A stretch of DNA of 64,000 nucleotides from assembly GCF_001653235.2 (NCBI RefSeq), contig NC_035791.1:4154001-4218000 (forward strand), in the 5' to 3' direction. The number at the start of each line of letters is the position of its first letter. Position 1 is the first letter of the stretch. The stretch is from Pochonia chlamydosporia 170. Lineage: Eukaryota > Ascomycota > Sordariomycetes > Hypocreales > Clavicipitaceae. Under the pieces are notes generated by a model, which made no database searches, was not told where the DNA came from, and saw only the letters and a program-made list of their open reading frames with translations. Both the position numbers and the translations under genes were made by a program. Shown in pieces: positions 54,979 to 63,910 of the stretch.

Positions 54979-56120
54979 ATGGCGATGAACCCAGAACGAG
55001 AACGAATGCTCAAAGAGAATGCTGACAAAGAATTTGAACCTCTCAATCCGCTACCTGTAAAATGCATTCGCATCACTGGCGCAAATGTACTTGCCCTCCA
55101 AGATCCGAGTGCTGGACAAACCCAGTCAGATTCTCCCAAGGTCAATAAAACAGTGGCCAAAGTATCAAGAAAACGATCTTATGATTCGTTCGAACAACAG
55201 AGCGTGGTAGATTCTGCGTACGATCAACGGCTGAAACGCAGACTGCCGCCTCAGTTGCCTCCTCGTATGTTAGGTCCAAATTTCATTCAGGCTCAGCTAA
55301 CTTTTACATAAAAGCACCACCCTCCAACAACCACACGGCATATCTTGCAAGCGTCCTCCGAAATTGGACGTTGAAGCTTACGCTGGAACCGACAGCGACC
55401 AAAAAGGCTGCCCCAGTAGCAGCAACACATCTGAGGCAGACGACGAGCGTGGGATTGCTGGTGACGGAACAAATAAGACGGCTTAATGCAATACCAGTGC
55501 TGCGGTTGCCTACGTTAGAGCAAGTCGAGAAGCTCCATTCTATGTCTCCGGGTCCCCTTGAACGAGTGGCACATGGCTCGCTGCTGGAAGACGTCTAGTA
55601 CAGTTTTTCAGCTGCGAATAAATACCACATGGCGCGCCAGATTCGAAAACTGGTCACACACTTAAGAAGCATGCCAAATAAAAACATACAGTTGGGATCC
55701 GTTTCCTCGGGAGGTTACTCTCTCCTCCTAGATAAGCATCAAAAAAGTACCTACTGGGCCGTGCGATCAAGTCCGACTTCTCGCACATTTGTTGCTTTTC
55801 TCACATCATCGTTTTACACCACCGTTCCTGGCCCGGTGGCCGCTACGCTTGCTGATCAACTACGGCCACATCCCATTGTTATGTCACACGGCGACATTTG
55901 TCCCAAGAACATCATTGTTGACAATTACAAAATTATCGCCATTCTAGGTTGGGACTGTGCAGGATGGTACCCTGATTGGTGGGAGTATGCCAAATTCTTC
56001 GAGGCCCGTACCAGTGACAAGAACTCGGACTGGTATGAGTATGCCGGCGAGATATTTAATACGGAGTTCCCTGCCGAGCTGGCAGCATACCAGGGAGTTG
56101 TTCGCTGCCAAACACCCTAA
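54979..56120 (+). pseudogene. Broken APH-like phosphotransferase (aminoglycoside/choline kinase fold)
   Basis: The 3' half (55315..56120) reads in one frame as the C-lobe of a fungal APH-family kinase: HGSLLEDV, LVTHLRSMPN, VMSHGDICPKNIIVDN (catalytic loop HGDxxxxN) and AGWYPDWWEYAKFFEART. It is interrupted by an in-frame TAG at 55596-55598, just where family members have Trp after LEDV, as if TGG had become TAG. In addition the metal-binding Asp of the IxDWExAGW motif is Gly (AILGWDCAGW). The N-lobe is not recognisable. A 5' frame from 54979 to 55264 joins to it by a good 50-bp intron (GTATGT...GCTAAC...AAAG), so a protein of 189 residues ending at the TAG could still be made. Inactive as a kinase; degeneration or a remnant fusion are both possible. 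Confidence 0.7.
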
Positions 56121-56411: not shown

Positions 56412-57240
56412 CTATTTCTCGAATCTCTTAGAGACAGTGCCCCAGTTAACAACCTCCCAGATGGCACTGAAGTACTCGGCCTTGCGGTTCTGGTACTGCA
56501 AGTAGTAGGCATGCTCCCAGGCATCAATACCCAGGAGAGGCTCCAGATTGCCAGTGATGGGATCCTGGTTAGCTCGGGTGACGAGACCAAGGGTACCAGA
56601 CGTCTTGTCCTTGACGAGCCAAGCCCAGCCAGAGCCCTGGATGCCAGCAAGAGCAGCGTTGGTCTGCTTCTTCAAGTTTTCGAAAGATCCGAAATCCTCG
56701 TTGATGGCGGTCTATAGGTAAGCGACTGTCAGTATTTGCTAGAATGACACTCCAAAAACAATGCTCAAAATCGGGCTACCATACCAAAAGCTTGCCCTCG
56801 GGCGCACCACCACCACCCTTGCCATTGGGAGCAAGATTCTCCCAGAAGAGCGAGTGGTTGACGTGGCCACCACCGTGGAAGTTCAGAAGAGGAGCCTGCG
56901 CAGCAGCAGCCTTGGTGTCGTTCTTGGACTGCGCCTCGGCTAGGGCTTCGGTAGCGGCGTTGAAGCTGTTTACATAGGTCTGGTGGTGCTTGGAGTGGTG
57001 CAGCTCCATGATCTGGCCGGAGATGTAGGGCTCGAGGGCGGCATAGTCATCTATTCGATTGCGCCGGTTAGCGAAACTCGCGCTCTTGCGAAAAGATAGT
57101 GAAGTGATAGTTGACTTACAAGGGAGATCGGGCAGAGTAGCCTTGCCGCGGACGAAGCTGGTGCTAGCCATGGCGATTGGCTTAGCGGCGCGGAAGCCAG
57201 CCCTCACAATGGGCGTTGTGCGAAGAAGCGCTGACGACAT
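56412..57240 (-). CDS. SOD2: Manganese superoxide dismutase, mitochondrial
   Basis: Converts superoxide to oxygen and hydrogen peroxide in the mitochondrial matrix. Three exons on the minus strand, 57240..57120, 57050..56785 and 56711..56412, give 228 residues. The junctions restore [13 protein letters not shown] and [18 protein letters not shown]. The first ~33 residues, rich in Arg, Ala and Ser without acids, form a targeting peptide. Metal ligands are His58 (MELHHSKHH), His106 ([11 protein letters not shown]), Asp192 and His196 ([13 protein letters not shown]). Other hallmarks include the Gly-rich GGHVNH and NYxxA-like helices. Gln/Gly positions suit a Mn rather than Fe enzyme ([18 protein letters not shown]), though metal choice is inferred from family. 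An alternative upstream ATG at 57306 would add 22 residues; 57240 gives the usual family N-terminus. Confidence 0.96.
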
Positions 57241-59101
57241 GATGAATCTGTGCGGGATGAGTTTTGAGCCGTGGAGAGATGCGATTGGGTTGCTGGATAT
57301 GGGCACGAATGGGGTAAAAGTATTGATGGGAGTAATGTGGTTGGAAACTAATCTTGGGGAGTGTAGTGAAGTCGGATTGACGGGTTGATATGGATGTTGG
57401 GCTTACCAATTGGAGTTGGGTCGTTGGTGGACAGACGGAAGAGGTGGATGATGTCAAAATGTCAAGTTGGAGACAGGAGCTTTCGGATAGCCGAGCTTTG
57501 AAGAGCGGGAGCTCCAGTCGAATTGCGTGCATCAGCCTGTCGTCACTGTGGGTGACGGCATGTGGAGACTGGATTGGACTCGTTGCGATGGTGGCTGGTG
57601 GTGTGGCGTTAACGGTGTGTGGCTTGACTGACGGTTGGAAAGCTGTTGCAACGGCTCTGCGGTTGTATGATTGCCGACAAAAACGGAGTTCAGATATTGT
57701 ATTTATTCTCTTTATTTAAGACCAAACTGTATCTTAATGTAGCAAACGTATCTTTACTGCAGCTATCTTGCGAAGGGTTGGTAGCAGTATTGAGTATACG
57801 TAGGCTATTCGGGAGGTTTTCATCCCCACAGTCAACCTCCTCTATGACGACCAACTGGCAGCACAACTTAATTCATAAAAACGTGGGTGAATTATTAATC
57901 TATAGGAGAAGCATCTTTATTGTAAAAGGAACCTATCACTCGGGAATTTCTGAGGTGCCGAAGCGCGAGATGGATCAGATTATCAACGGTTATGCTCCTA
58001 GTGGGCCGATCGGAGGCGAGCGCACTTCCGAGCCAGTTAGGGTAAAGCTTCTTGGCAGACATCATGCCATGGCAATTCACAGACGCAATTAGCACGCGCA
58101 GTCCTTTTTATTGGACTCCAGAGATATGAAACTCTGTAGCTGTTAATACCATCAACCAAGCAGAATTATAATCCCCGACGCCGTTCATGACGAATTGACA
58201 GGTCTAGCATCGTACTCCAATTCTGTCCGGTGGTGTGATGGCTGCCTAACTGGAACATTTGAACCAATAATTGGGCCAGACGGATTGATTCCTGTCTGTT
58301 CTTCACTGCAATTTTAACCTCCCATGAGACTTGATCCTCCACACAAAATAGGACAGGGGAAATAGCATTGAACCTTCAGTGGTCGGGCTTGGCAGTGGGG
58401 GCTGCATGTGTATTTTCTGGGGGGGACGGTGGGCACCAGACTTCACTGCAATTTTAACCTCCGTCGAGGGCGGATCCTCGTCCGTAAACCTACAATGGGA
58501 CGTGGAAAGTGGAAAAGCTCTCCGACTTAGGCCTCATTCCCAAAAGTGAGGCTGCAAAAATCGGTTTCACTGCATGCGAAACCGGTCCAGAAGAGTTTGC
58601 TTATCACGAATAGTAACTTCTCGCCTGGCAACTCAAGGCTTCCAATCCCATTCACAGGCTCTTTATTCTAATGGCAATGCGGTATCGCTCTACGGGAATG
58701 AAGTGTCCGCAGACGCTGTCCCATCAACGTCGTCGAACAAATTCTCAAGAAGCAGCCTTTTGCACTGTCCTCCACTCTTGCAAGTAGCTCAGAAATCTGA
58801 AGCTGTGCCTCTTGGTGGCAGTGTTTGGAGGCTTAGCAGACAAAGTCTGAGGCCTTACCTCCCTGTTCCTTGACAAGCCGTTGGTGGTGACACTGCAACC
58901 GGAGACCACATACACACGACATGCTTACAACCACGAGAGACCCCGAGTGAGGCTGACATCACCGTAAACTGTCGCTGACCGTACATGATGACACAACTTT
59001 AGGAGGTCAAGAAACTCACCGTCTGCCCACACCCAAAATTTCTGTAAGAATAACACCGTTGGCCTCCACGCACTGCAAGCCGTGGGAATGCATCACGGGC
59101 T
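57241..59101. other. Intergenic region with a 22-bp direct repeat
   Basis: About 1.9 kb between the SOD gene and the HET gene (divergent). It holds a direct repeat (58301 and 58441, exactly 140 bp apart). No coding exon is supported; the short frames lack family features. Confidence 0.45.
58301..58462. repeat. Direct repeat CTTCACTGCAATTTTAACCT, two copies 140 bp apart
   Basis: Copies start at 58301 and 58441. They are identical over 22 bp, then share a diverged tail ending in GATCCTC. This looks like a decayed tandem duplication of a 140-bp unit; the rest of the units has drifted. Confidence 0.75.
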
Positions 59102-61120
59102 ATGAGGCACCACCGTCAAACTCCGGCTAAGGGAACTTCAGGACAAGCTGAAGCAGGCCTCGACGATGCCCAAGATGACCTGAGGCGTAAGAGACCAAGA
59201 AAAAGTAAACATAATGGTTGTTCTTTGTGCACTTCACTTTTCTCACACCGTGGCCTGGCACTTCTCAATTCAACCACTGGCTTTAGACACGGCACTCGAG
59301 AGGAATGCATGAATTCAAAGGCGGAAGGTTGCGAGATGTGTGTGTTCATACTGTCTTCCGTCTCCAAGAATCACGATGTATGCTGGACGGATGACGATCC
59401 CCTTATATTCCGCAATGTTGGATCTGTACCTTCTGGAACGCCGAATTCACGGCCCCAGACAAGCGGCATACACAAGCTCCACGGCAGCTTTGCGTCAAAC
59501 CGGCAGGATTCTGTCATAGGTATTCATACCTTTGCTGAGAAAGGCAAGTATCCTTTAGTGATGCATAGTAACCGCAATCTTGCCTGCCTCTAACAGAAGC
59601 TAGGGGATCCTATGAGTTCCATTGTACATCGGAGACCACTCCGCCGCGACGTGACCCGTGATTCTGTGTTTGCAGCGGCAAAGAGTCTCATCATGGCTTG
59701 TATGGATCCCGATAAGCCTCACGTTCTTTGCAAATACTCTCGAGATACTGTACTTCCAACACGAGTTCTAGATGTTAGCAACCCCGCCGACGATGAGTCC
59801 ACGGTGAGATTGCAAGTGAGCGAGACCGAGGTTCACCAGCAATATCTCGCATTGAGCTACTGCTGGGGTAAACAACCCAAGTCCACAAGCCCAACGAAGA
59901 CGGTGCAGTTACGCAAAGAAAATACGGCAGACCTCATCTCCGGGTTCAGGCTCGACAGTCTTCAACAGTCTTTGCAAGATGCGGTTTTCGTCACTCGCAA
60001 GCTAGGCTTCCGCTACCTCTGGATTGACGCGATGTGCATCATTCAAAATTGTGAAGATGACAAACAAAGAGAGATTTCCCGCATGGCATCTATTTATAAG
60101 AATGCTACCGTCTGTATCGCAGCGTCAACTTCAAAGAATGCGGCTCATGGGTTTCTCACGAATAAAGGACCGGCATATCTCCCAGATCACAAGTTCCGTA
60201 TCTCCATGAACGAAGGAGAGATCGGGACTGTTCACCTATCGGCAGAGGATTACGAGCCGGAACACCCTCTGGATACAAGGGCGTGGGCCTTGCAAGAGTT
60301 TATGCTGTCATCCAGATTGCTGATCTTCTCCGACTACGAGCTGTTGTGGCAGTGTAAGGAAGTGAGCCTTCGCGGCGTTACTGGAAATGGTCTCGACTAT
60401 GTACAGCCGCTGGAGGATTTGCCGTGGGCTGTGTTTGATAGTGACGGGGATTCTTATTTTGGAAACCAGGATTTTGACAGGCTATACCTGTGGAAGACTG
60501 TGGTTCGACAATACACTGACAGGAAGCTCACCGACCCAAACGATAGACTTCCAGCAATCACTGGAATTACCACGGAGCTACAAACACTATGGAACGATGT
60601 CAATATTTATGGGCTCTGGAGACGATGGTTTGTATCACTCTTGGCATGGTATAAGCCAAATTCTGAACGAGAAAAAAAGCGTCACCTCAAACGAGCGCCG
60701 AGTTGGTCTTGGGCCTCACTTGATGGAGTCATTTATTTCGAAGGGCCTTTAATTAAAGAGGACGCACAAGTCAAGTTATTGACTATATCAAGTGCAGAGC
60801 TCACTGGTCGTATTCTCACGTATGATGAAGTATCCAAAGATGAAAAAAAATTGGACACCATATCGGAATGGTCAGATCTGAAAGATCCAATCTCAGAACT
60901 CCGAAAGATGAAATCCGCGGACGCAGAGGCGGAGTACTTGCTTTTAGGTACGGCCAAATCCAAACAATATGGCGAAATCGGTATTGGCTTAGTTGTGGTA
61001 AATGTAGGCGGTGGGATGTACCGACGGATTGGACTGGCAAAGTTCTTGGACATGAGTGTATGGGCAGAATCCCGGCCACGAGACGTCACCTTGGAGCCCA
61101 AACGTGCATCTAGAAGATAG
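59102..61120 (+). CDS. HET-domain protein (heterokaryon incompatibility family)
   Basis: HET-domain proteins trigger cell death in fungal non-self recognition; the domain is distantly TIR-like. Two exons, 59102..59543 and 59604..61120, give 652 residues. The 60-bp intron is of the rare GC-AG type: donor AAAG|GCAAGT, branch CTCTAAC, acceptor AGCTAG|GG. It restores EKGDPMSSIVHRRPLRRDV, the xGDPxxxxxxRPLxxxV linker found before HET domains. A GT-AG alternative (donor after Leu in KYPL) is possible but fits less well. The N-terminal part has CxxC pairs (NGCSLCTS, GCEMCVFI). The HET domain begins near residue 228 with YLALSYCWG and continues with DAVFVTRKLGFRYLWIDAMCIIQ (about 272-295), RMASIYKNATVCIAAS, and DTRAWALQEFMLSSRLLIFS. 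It converges on the NACHT gene with 60 bp between stops. Confidence 0.92.
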
Positions 61121-61180
61121 GTATATTGTTATTATATCGAATTCAGTGAATAGCAAACTCCATAGTAACAGTTGTGTGCT

Positions 61181-63910
61181 CTAGGCTCCCTTCCGTCTAT
61201 GATTCTTCTCATGCCTTCGACAATCATTCAACCTCACGAATTTCTTGCCGCAACTTGAGCAAGCATATGGACGATCATCAAAATGACTTCTTTCGTGCCC
61301 TTTCAGATTGATTTTCCTCGTAAACTGTCTCTTGCAAATGTAACATGTAAATCCACCCGGTGTGGATTTGCGACTCAATCCCCTGAAAATGGACGGACCA
61401 TCGTGCAATTCAGTATGGTAGAGCCTCACATGCCTCTCTCTGCTTGCGTTGGTAGAAAACCCGATGGGAGCGGAGCTGCAGTTCACCGGGCACGCATATG
61501 GCCTCTCATGTCGCTTGTCGTGTTCATCGCGATCTTTCTTGTCGTCGTACCCAAGGTAGAAGTACCTGCACAACGTCCGCTTGCATTTGAAGAGATTGGA
61601 GCCATAATACTCCTCAACAGTGTCGCCAGAGAAGACCTTGTCGCTTGGCTTCAAATTGTTCTCAATAGTGGTTCTATTTTGCTGTAGTGCGTTGTCGATC
61701 TGAGGAATTCCGACCAAATTGCGCATCGTTTCGTCCACGCTCTCCTGGTGTATGTAGATTTGGTTACAGACTAGACGAAGATTATCAAAGAATGGGAATT
61801 CCGCGAAGTATGCAAGCTCAACAAACGACTGGCCGAGACCCGGGTGTAATGTTTGCTCAAGATCATGACCGTGTGTCTGTATAAACAAATCCAGAGCCAA
61901 CCCAAGCTTAGTTTGGTACTCTTTGTCATGGTCTTCGAAGAGAAGAAAGTTGCAGCAGTCCACAAGTATGGTATGGATATGCGTATACCATTGCGAACAT
62001 GCATAATCCTGAAAACTGAACCAACCAAGCTTTGCTTCTCGCTTTCGAGACCGTTCGTCATAGTTTCGCGAGAAACAAGGGAGACAGAGGTACCTGAGAC
62101 AGAGTATCCCCAAGTCGCACTTGACTGCTTGCTGATTTATGTGACTGTTCTGTATGATATACCTGATTCGTGCCGTGTTACCTTTCGACTCTCGTCATCT
62201 CGTTATGAGCATACATGTCTAACTTACAATCTCGCGGTGGGATGAATGATGCGGATGTGACCTCCATCCAAAATATGCACCAGAGATCCCAGATACGTTC
62301 GTATATACTGTCGCAGCATTCTATTGTCAAAGTCGACGGTCTGGTTTATCGGGTTGTATGACAATATAGCCTGCATTTCATGCCACTGCAGTGGCCGCTT
62401 CGCACAGGCCAGCCAGCCCAGAAGAAGTTTTGACTTTTGCCACTGCTTTTCGCCGTCCGAGAGGCGAAATAATTCGCTCTTCATGGCGCCAATAAGCTGC
62501 TCATATCTGTGTCTAGCAGTAAGCATTTGCCACTTGGAAGTGATGAAAGGATCTGTAGTGGATATACATCTCTTCTAGTTTCTCTGGAATCATCTGGCCC
62601 CTAATCTTTTCACGTAGTTCGCCTTTATCAGGCTGTTGCAAGAGGTACTCGATTGCGAGATGTGCATATAGGAACATATCTGTTGAGTTACTTAGTATAC
62701 GTTTGCACGAGCTCTGCGCTTTCTAGTGAGACTTTTGCAGAAACTAACCTTCACTTCGACTGCAAATGATCCCTTCGATTTGGGCTACATCCGTGTCCTC
62801 CAAGTTAAACCCATTTCTCGTGCCACGTGGCGTAGAAAACTCAATTACCCTTTTCTTGACATATGCTCTGATGTCTTCTGCAATGTCTGTCGGCTTCAGT
62901 GCGATGCATGGATCATCACCTTGTGTGAGCTCGTCCCTAACCAACTCTGGCATCGGCTGGCTTATGAACATCACTCTCATTCTACCCTGTTTAATTTCGC
63001 TATCAAACCTTTCAGCTTGCTTAACAAAGAACCTTGCAATTTGGGTTGCTTCAACTTTTTCACACTCATCAAGTCCATCGATGAGGATGTATTGTCTGGG
63101 GTTGAATTCCAGAACTGCACCCATGATAATCTTTGCAAGGTCGGCTTCTGCCAACGCCGGTCCGCCGCCTGACACAACTTTGTCGTTAAAAAATGGTAGC
63201 AAGTAGCTGGTATTATCGATCATCTGATGCAGAATGCCCTTCAGAACATTCAAGTAAGTACAGCTGTCTGGGTCTTCTTTCTGACAGTAAAAATAATAGA
63301 CTTTGCTCCCCTTTGGAATCGAATGTCTAGTCGTATGGCATAAATCCCGCAATTCGTCGATGATTACGGACGCCAGGACAGTTTTTCCTGTTGCCCGATT
63401 AGTCTTGTCATTGGTATAGTCCGAATATATCCGTACCAAACCCCCGGTTGGAGGATAGCCAAAGCAAAGACTCCGGTGGCTGTTCTAATTGTATCCAGTC
63501 ATTAACTTTGCTGTATCTTTTGAATATCCAGCGGCCTGTCCCAGGACAAATTCTCATGCACTGAAAGGTTTTGTGAAGCGCCTGAGTTTTACTTGACGCC
63601 TGGACCCAATTCAAGACTCTCTCCTTCATGTTCCGCACCCGGTCCTCTTCTTGCACTTCAAAGTTGGATCGAGATTCGTTCAATGTCCTCCGATAATAGT
63701 CAAATTCCGCTTCAGCAGAGTTTCCAGTCATAGTTCCCATCGGTATCCGGGGGCTTAACCACTGGATGTCGTCATGAACTGTTGCTCCGGCCTTCCTATG
63801 AGACCAACCATTGTTCTGGATGAATTGTCCGTGGCTTGCCAAGGAGTCAGCTAGGTGCCTGAACGTCTCCCTCAGTGCTGTCCATTTTGTTCTGTGCAGC
63901 CTCTGCCATA
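61181..63910 (-). CDS. NACHT NLR-like protein with C-terminal C2H2 zinc fingers, 5' end not visible
   Basis: STAND NTPase of the fungal NLR class. Visible exons on the minus strand: 63910..63437, 63387..62749, 62679..62568, 62506..62228 and 62144..61181, together about 820 residues; each intron keeps frame and restores family sequence. Exon 1 codes for a helical region (TALRETFRHLADSLASHG) ahead of the NTPase. Walker A is assembled across an intron as SNRGFGKTVLAS; Walker B is YILIDGLDECEK. Then follow MFLYAHLAIEYLLQQ, the winged-helix-like KLLLGWLACAKRPLQWHE and LCLRYLCLPCF. The C-terminus has about four C2H2 fingers, the last two perfect (C-x2-C-x12-H-x3-H: FTCYICKRQF..., YACSSCGKKF...) instead of WD, ankyrin or TPR repeats. 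Upstream of 63910 the frame meets a stop after a likely acceptor (GCCAG), so the first exon(s) lie at or beyond the window edge. Confidence 0.85.

What the first reader, a model, noticed from the sequence alone, without database searches (positions are those of the whole stretch)
59102..63910. Tail-to-tail HET-domain / NACHT-C2H2 pair: candidate allorecognition locus
A complete HET-domain gene and an NLR-like NACHT gene converge with only 60 bp between stop codons. In known fungal systems NLRs are often genetically linked to the effector they activate (for example NWD2 with HET-S; PLP-1 with SEC-9). Here the NLR carries C2H2 fingers where most fungal NLRs have WD, ankyrin or TPR repeats, so ligand sensing could involve nucleic acid or zinc-finger protein contacts, and the HET protein could be its death effector. 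Functional pairing is inference; the architecture and spacing are seen directly.
Basis: partly seen in the sequence, partly recalled or inferred. Interest (0 to 1): 0.75.

Follow-up and report, generated by a model that had tools for sequence, protein, structure and literature searches.

The report
Conserved zinc-finger NLR–HET gene pair
In an unnamed filamentous fungus, a HET-domain gene and a receptor-like NACHT gene ending in four zinc fingers meet tail to tail 60 bases apart, and their relatives lie on contigs of identical length in 15 other fungal genomes, so the two proteins likely work together as a predicted two-part cell-death alarm whose trigger is still untested.

Summary
The pair is real. 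The HET gene is complete (652 aa, one predicted GC-AG intron). Stop codons are 60 bp apart.

Within this genome the spacing proves little (4 of 93 NACHT loci within 5 kb of a HET locus; 2.2 expected). Comparison does better: independent searches put both families on contigs of identical length, same organism, for 15 of 41 NLR-family rows; 26 are unresolved. Consecutive locus tags in 5 of 5 testable cases. The 15 genomes span three classes. Both gene trees reject Nectriaceae as one clade, so the genes probably travelled together.

The fingers look DNA-binding: 16 zinc ligands invariant in 17 of 17 tails compared, tail as conserved as NACHT, which does not suit a hypervariable allorecognition sensor. 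Best reading: NLR plus trans-acting HET effector, a split counterpart of HET-E. Allorecognition is untested. New variant of a known kind.

The parts
59102..61120 (+). HET gene, 652 aa, two predicted exons: 59102-59543 and 59604-61120
   Evidence: Open frames, splice model, PF06985; best homologues 59-60% identical over nearly full length
59544..59603 (+). predicted GC-AG intron (GCAAGT donor, CTAG acceptor) of the HET gene
   Evidence: restores a stretch like that of homologue P0058
59843..60298 (+). HET domain (PF06985)
   Evidence: own-genome match C2:4213843-4214298, 114.9 bits
61121..61180 (.). 60-bp gap between the two stop codons
61181..64000 (-). NACHT-C2H2 gene (NLR-like), part inside the window; seven predicted exons, 988 aa, predicted ATG at 64507 outside the window (exons 64507-64226, 64166-63968, 63910-63437, 63387-62749, 62679-62568, 62506-62228, 62162-61181)
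   Evidence: exon joints agree with homologues
63002..63542 (-). NACHT / NPHP3_N NTPase domain (protein 284-447), spans one intron
   Evidence: PF24883 86.7 bits, cut-off 24.8
63380..63452 (-). Walker A region (SNRGFGKT), split by intron 63436-63388; its first glycine is serine here
62141..62433 (-). winged-helix domain GPIID_WHD (protein 594-669)
   Evidence: PF22939 30.3 bits, cut-off 27
61199..61585 (-). four C2H2-type zinc fingers (protein 855-983): 61508-61585, 61415-61492, 61283-61345, 61199-61261
   Evidence: 16 ligands invariant in 17 of 17 tails compared, of 21 aligned; Pfam C2H2 matches for fingers 3-4, below cut-off in the query

Best explanation
The locus holds an NLR-like gene with four C2H2 zinc fingers and a stand-alone HET-domain gene, whose relatives lie on contigs of identical length in 15 other genomes, and they likely form one two-gene cell-death module in which the NLR is predicted to switch on the HET protein. 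Predicted steps: the zinc-finger tail binds a conserved target, most likely a DNA sequence or a DNA-like ligand, and holds the NACHT ATPase at rest. Loss or change of that contact, or binding of foreign nucleic acid, lets the NACHT domains assemble. The assembled all-helical N-terminal domains gather and activate the separate HET protein, which would then kill or disable the cell. This would be the split form of what HET-E does in one polypeptide. Shown here: the architecture, the 60-bp convergent arrangement, the equal contig lengths, the shared tree splits and the conservation of the fingers. Inferred: every step of signalling.
For: Independent homologue lists for the two proteins give 15 of 41 NLR rows with a HET row (of 120 listed, 288 found) on a contig of identical length, all 15 in the same organism (names compared by eye); one of these contigs is only 22,200 bp. 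Consecutive locus tags in 5 of 5 testable cases: DL771_000109/110, DV736_g1623/g1624, TrAtP1_007485/7486, QQS21_003142/3143, FAVG1_11496/11497. Pairwise identities of the two proteins over 16 pairs correlate at r = 0.964 (0 of 5000 permutations as high). Both proteins reject Nectriaceae as one clade (AU p 2e-5 and 9e-4; 3e-6 and 0.002 without the query) and Hypocreales (3e-4 and 0.02). Own genome: no close second copy; other NACHT matches are 21-28% identical and the best-scoring other HET 34%. The model of family member P0002 (pLDDT 86.6) matches CED-4 and NRC2 and, at the tail, fingers of ZBTB38, WT1 and Zif268. Finger 4 positions R972, D975, R978 are invariant in 17 of 17. Precedent: NWD2 beside het-S (PMC3321046, PMC9815663, passages).
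Against: 26 of 41 NLR rows have no matching HET row; only 120 of 288 HET hits were listed and rows are 90% clusters, so these are unresolved. Same contig is inferred from equal contig length; strands and distances elsewhere were not seen. Adjacency in this genome alone is only about twice expectation. No local similarity between the two proteins (best E 4.6), so no shared amyloid-type motif is visible. The query's Walker A lacks its first glycine, so this copy may be weak. A class-level conflict with taxonomy did not hold once the query was left out (AU p 0.42 and 0.34). No cell-death, binding or expression data exist here. Correlated trees are also expected from plain linkage, and no control gene pair was run.
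Confidence: 0.6

Rival explanations
1. The pair is an allorecognition (heterokaryon incompatibility) locus: alleles differ between strains and the mismatch triggers the HET protein.
For: HET domains and NLRs recur among het genes (PMC10197012, PMC10890737, passages). HET proteins from three genomes named Fusarium avenaceum are only 79-84% identical, along their whole length; other same-name comparisons gave 85-90% (four species) and 53-61% (F. lateritium).
Against: The sensor-like fingers are conserved across genera (mean column identity 0.68, NACHT 0.64) instead of hypervariable. The within-species differences may be species misnaming, species complexes or gene models. Only 4 of 132 HET genes in P. 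anserina are incompatibility genes (PMC10890737, passages).
Confidence: 0.15
2. The two genes are neighbours by passive linkage or shared transfer and do not work together.
For: This genome alone shows only a mild excess of NACHT-HET neighbours (4 against 2.2 within 5 kb). Correlated trees follow from linkage alone. A possible third neighbour, a SNF2 gene, is hinted at by the names of two Colletotrichum HET relatives.
Against: Equal contig lengths in 15 genomes of three classes at 44-61% identity to the query, consecutive tags in 5 of 5, and shared taxonomy-discordant splits.
Confidence: 0.13
3. The zinc-finger NLR is mainly a transcription regulator that binds DNA and controls the HET gene or other genes, and does not switch the HET protein on at protein level.
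For: Near-canonical linkers, invariant ligands and conserved contact residues in fingers 3-4; fold matches to DNA-bound fingers (E 0.004-0.012).
Against: The finger array is the tail of a full NACHT-winged-helix STAND ATPase with an N-terminal helical domain, the layout of a switch. Binding sites near the HET gene were not tested.
Confidence: 0.12

Closest known systems
NWD2 / HET-S two-gene cluster (Podospora anserina and others; PMC3321046, PMC9815663, passages)
   Same: An NLR gene next to the gene of the cell-death effector that it activates; gene neighbourhood kept across species while orientation may vary
   Different: Effector there is a HeLo pore-former and the signal is a shared amyloid motif; here the neighbour is a HET protein, no shared motif was found by blastp, and the tail is four C2H2 fingers
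HET-E / HET-D / HET-R (HNWD family; PMC4986451, PMC12881547, passages)
   Same: Combine a HET domain with a NACHT NLR
   Different: There the HET domain is fused to the NLR and the sensor is hypervariable WD repeats; here HET and NLR are separate genes and the sensor-like tail is conserved fingers
C2H2-tailed NLRs of Sordariales (PMC12258605, section 14 and passages)
   Same: 34 of 4613 Sordariales NLRs carry C2H2 fingers; zinc fingers of all types were C-terminal in 52 of 57
   Different: The text seen treats the fingers as non-canonical binding domains or possible decoys, notes a debated nucleic-acid role for zinc fingers of plant NLRs, and does not mention a linked HET gene
het-B locus, Bh/Bp (PMC10890737, passages)
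   Same: A HET-domain gene that works with the product of the adjacent gene
   Different: The partner is a PII-like protein, the HET protein carries a lectin fold, and alleles are strongly divergent

Membership tests
Fungal NLR (STAND NTPase) | NACHT-type NTPase over the curated Pfam cut-off | tested here: met
   PF24883 86.7 bits against 24.8; PF22939 winged helix 30.3 against 27; PF05729 itself is below its cut-off in the query (13.9 against 26.7)
Fungal NLR (STAND NTPase) | intact Walker A and B motifs | tested here: inconclusive
   GKT and a Walker B stretch (ILIDGLDE) present; first Walker A glycine is serine in the query, glycine in the other 20 of 21 aligned; motif names recalled
Fungal NLR (STAND NTPase) | C-terminal WD, ankyrin or TPR repeats | tested here: not met
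   Pfam finds none in the query; four C2H2 fingers instead. Filed as NLR-like with a non-canonical tail
Fungal NLR (STAND NTPase) | recognised N-terminal effector or signalling domain | tested here: inconclusive
   DUF7708 matches 8 of 21 family members but not the query at E 0.01; the region is all-helical in the model of P0002
HET-domain protein (PF06985) | HET domain over cut-off | tested here: met
   111.2 bits against 22.5
HET-domain protein (PF06985) | TIR-like fold | tested here: inconclusive
   [not shown]
HET-domain protein (PF06985) | induces cell death | not testable with these tools
   needs expression in a laboratory fungus
NLR-effector two-gene cluster (NWD2/HET-S type) | receptor and effector genes adjacent and adjacency kept across species | tested here: met
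NLR-effector two-gene cluster (NWD2/HET-S type) | shared amyloid signalling motif | tested here: not met
   no local similarity between the two proteins, best E 4.6; amyloid profiles were not scanned, so the test is weak
Allorecognition (het) locus | divergent alleles under balancing selection within a species | not testable with these tools
   no strain genomes of this species; F. avenaceum HET proteins 79-84% identical is only a hint
HNWD (HET-E type) all-in-one NLR | HET, NACHT and WD repeats in one protein | tested here: not met
   separate genes on opposite strands

The most novel reading that the evidence does not exclude
A two-gene immune cassette that has moved between lineages of filamentous fungi as a unit: a nucleic-acid-reading NLR (conserved C2H2 tail) that fires a separate TIR-like HET executioner, the split counterpart of HET-E and an assigned job for a stand-alone HET gene.
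Probability: 0.26. Interest if true: 0.88.

Novelty: new variant of a known kind. Interest (0 to 1): 0.7.

Why it matters
HET is one of the commonest domains in fungal genomes (117 per strain or species on average in Sordariales, PMC10890737, passages), yet only a few HET genes have a known role and how HET domains kill is unknown. A HET gene tied to one NLR in genomes of three classes gives a concrete candidate receptor for a stand-alone HET protein, in genera that can be worked with in the laboratory such as Trichoderma. A conserved zinc-finger tail in place of variable repeats would point to nucleic-acid sensing or to guarding of a fixed chromosomal or protein target; in the passages that I saw, this was raised only for plant NLRs (PMC12258605).

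Tried and rejected
First splice models (993-aa NLR; 649-aa HET with a 69-nt GT-AG intron) were replaced after comparison with homologues; searches used the first models, which differ by a few residues at the joints.

Chance spacing in this genome: about twice expectation at each distance tried (3 kb 3 against 1.3, 5 kb 4 against 2.2, 10 kb 9 against 4.4, 20 kb 16 against 8.8), so not used as evidence for the pair. Two of the four cases within 5 kb (C12 near 200879, C13 near 345412) look like HET and NACHT in one gene.

Transfer between classes: both genes rejected the 13 sordariomycete rows as one clade (p 0.004 and 0.025), but that test put the query on the excluded side. Repeated without the query it is not rejected (p 0.42 and 0.34), so I withdraw it; the Nectriaceae conflict stays. 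The groups were chosen after the trees were seen, so all these p-values are optimistic.

Related loci as DNA: viral contigs gave none; genome contigs gave two weak HET loci in a bacterial MAG (33% and 44% identity), not this family. Metagenome scans had a cap of zero. Orientation and spacing elsewhere are therefore unknown.

Shared amyloid-like motif: none by blastp. Fold of the HET protein: no convincing PDB match. The 50 rows shown by the second look for the NLR name neither MLKL nor HeLo, but the N-terminus was barely tested.

Rows dropped before the contig count: P0023-P0052 and P0192-P0193 as distant relatives (31% identity or less, except P0031 with 35% over 11% of the query). One search used 20 of the 52 rows; the structure alignments used 43 of 73 NLR rows and 44 of 120 listed HET rows.

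Papers: nine searches of the held library. None of the titles and abstract beginnings listed (capped) describes a conserved pair of a stand-alone HET gene and a C2H2 NLR. Supplements were not available and most subscription papers are not held.
Full report
What is there. The HET gene is read on the + strand from ATG 59102 to stop 61118-61120. An in-frame stop lies upstream of the ATG (59051). Homologue P0058 contains GDPMGTIVHRRPL; a matching stretch is restored here if the intron is 59544-59603 with a GC-AG boundary (GCAAGT donor, CTAG acceptor). This gives 652 aa. The HET domain matches PF06985 with 111.2 bits (cut-off 22.5, first splice model).

The NACHT gene lies on the - strand and ends 60 bp from the HET stop codon. 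The model has seven exons, introns of 49-69 nt with GT-AG ends, 988 aa and an ATG at 64507. Exon joints agree with the homologues in alignment A1. Domains: NPHP3_N/NACHT at 284-447 (86.7 bits), winged helix at 594-669 (30.3 bits), C2H2 matches at the tail, below their cut-offs in the query. DUF7708 is recognised at the N-terminus in 8 of 21 family members, not in the query.

Is the spacing more than chance? Within this 44.2-Mb genome, only weakly. After merging hits closer than 1.5 kb there are 105 HET loci and 93 NACHT loci. Four NACHT loci lie within 5 kb of a HET locus where uniform placement gives 2.2; within 10 kb, 9 against 4.4; within 20 kb, 16 against 8.8.

The comparative evidence. 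Two protein searches were run independently, one per gene, and one with the NLR alignment. Each row shows the length of the longest contig that holds the protein. Of 41 NLR-family rows, 15 have a HET-family row (of 120 listed, 288 found) on a contig of exactly the same length, and in all 15 the organism is the same (names compared by eye): Xylaria FL1777, Biscogniauxia FL1348 (a contig of 22,200 bp), B. mediterranea, Dactylonectria macrodidyma, Xylogone PMI_703, Monosporascus 5C6A, Trichoderma barbatum, Thozetella PMI_491, Chaetothyriales CBS 134916, Clonostachys rosea, T. atroviride, Fusarium redolens, Conoideocrella luteorostrata, Fusarium NRRL 52700, F. avenaceum. By eye, I found no assembly listed on both sides with different contigs. 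Where both names carry serial locus tags the tags are consecutive, 5 of 5 (Monosporascus, Chaetothyriales, T. atroviride, Conoideocrella, F. avenaceum). The 15 contig lengths sum to 17.3 Mb, so random placement in genomes of about 45 Mb (an assumed size) would give about 0.4 shared contigs; this is rough arithmetic.

Breadth and history. Xylogone is a leotiomycete, the Chaetothyriales isolate a eurotiomycete, and Dactylonectria, Conoideocrella, Thozetella and Biscogniauxia are sordariomycetes; the remaining genera are sordariomycetes by recall. Pairwise identities of NLR and HET over the 16 pairs (query included) correlate at r = 0.964, 0 of 5000 permutations as high. Dactylonectria's pair is 80% (NLR) and 81% (HET) identical to Xylaria's, but 47-49% and 48-54% to the two Fusarium pairs compared, which belong to its own family. 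Holding Nectriaceae together is rejected for both genes (AU p 2e-5 and 9e-4; 3e-6 and 0.002 without the query), as is Hypocreales (3e-4 and 0.02). A conflict at class level is not shown: with the query left out, the 13 sordariomycete rows are not rejected as one side of a branch (p 0.42 and 0.34). Groups were chosen after seeing the trees. Either transfer or old duplication with loss fits the Nectriaceae result, but the two genes went through it together. In the query genome no close second copy was found: other NACHT matches are 21-28% identical, finger-only matches up to 51%, and the best-scoring other HET is 34% identical (only the best candidates are scored there).

Mechanism. I commit to a receptor-effector module: fingers as bait or ligand binder, NACHT as switch, helical N-terminus as signalling platform, HET protein as executioner. 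Only the parts list, the linkage and the conservation are shown. PMC3321046 (passages) states that STAND and effector couples can occur as an adjacent gene pair or all-in-one. HET-NACHT all-in-one proteins are known (HET-E), and this genome seems to have two (C12 near 200879, C13 near 345412). The pair described here would be the split form with HET as effector.

Novelty. C2H2-tailed NLRs are in print (34 of 4613 in Sordariales, PMC12258605, section 14 and passages), and NLR-effector gene pairs are in print (NWD2/HET-S). A conserved pair of C2H2-tailed NLR and stand-alone HET gene was not found in the listings of nine searches of the held library, which lacks most subscription papers. I call it a new variant of a known kind.

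Limits. No DNA of the other loci could be read, no control gene pair could be run, no strain data exist for this species, and the query's own NLR lacks the first Walker A glycine, present in the other 20 of 21 aligned sequences, so this particular copy may be impaired.

Noticed in passing
window 63380-63452: Walker A of this NLR reads SSNRGFGKT where most relatives read HGSKGFGKT or similar; the first glycine is serine only in the query among 21 aligned.
   Followed up: partly
window 59544-59603: Predicted GC-AG intron in the HET gene, a rare donor type (recalled).
   Followed up: yes
L010 1264 onward (window about 65264, outside the window): A SNF2-domain helicase gene, with a RING match below cut-off, is divergent from the NLR (start codon chosen by eye); two Colletotrichum HET relatives (P0155, P0157) carry 'SNF2 family domain-containing protein' in their names, hinting at a wider shared neighbourhood.
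   Followed up: partly
G000 C12:200879-201934 and C13:345412-346350: HET and NACHT matches on one strand within 0.8 kb, likely all-in-one HET-NACHT genes.
   Followed up: no
G000 C6:2957051-2960052: A NACHT match with five internal stops lies 2.6 kb from a HET match; perhaps a decayed pair.
   Followed up: no
window 58301-58479: Two direct copies of a 39-nt repeat, 82% alike, 140 bp apart, upstream of the HET gene.
   Followed up: no
P0121, P0122, P0145: HET relatives from three genomes named Fusarium avenaceum are only 79-84% identical along the whole protein; diverged alleles or species misnaming.
   Followed up: partly
[not shown]
   Followed up: no
window 56776-57306 and 55629-56120: Open frames matching an Fe/Mn superoxide dismutase (-) and an APH-family phosphotransferase (+).
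   Followed up: no
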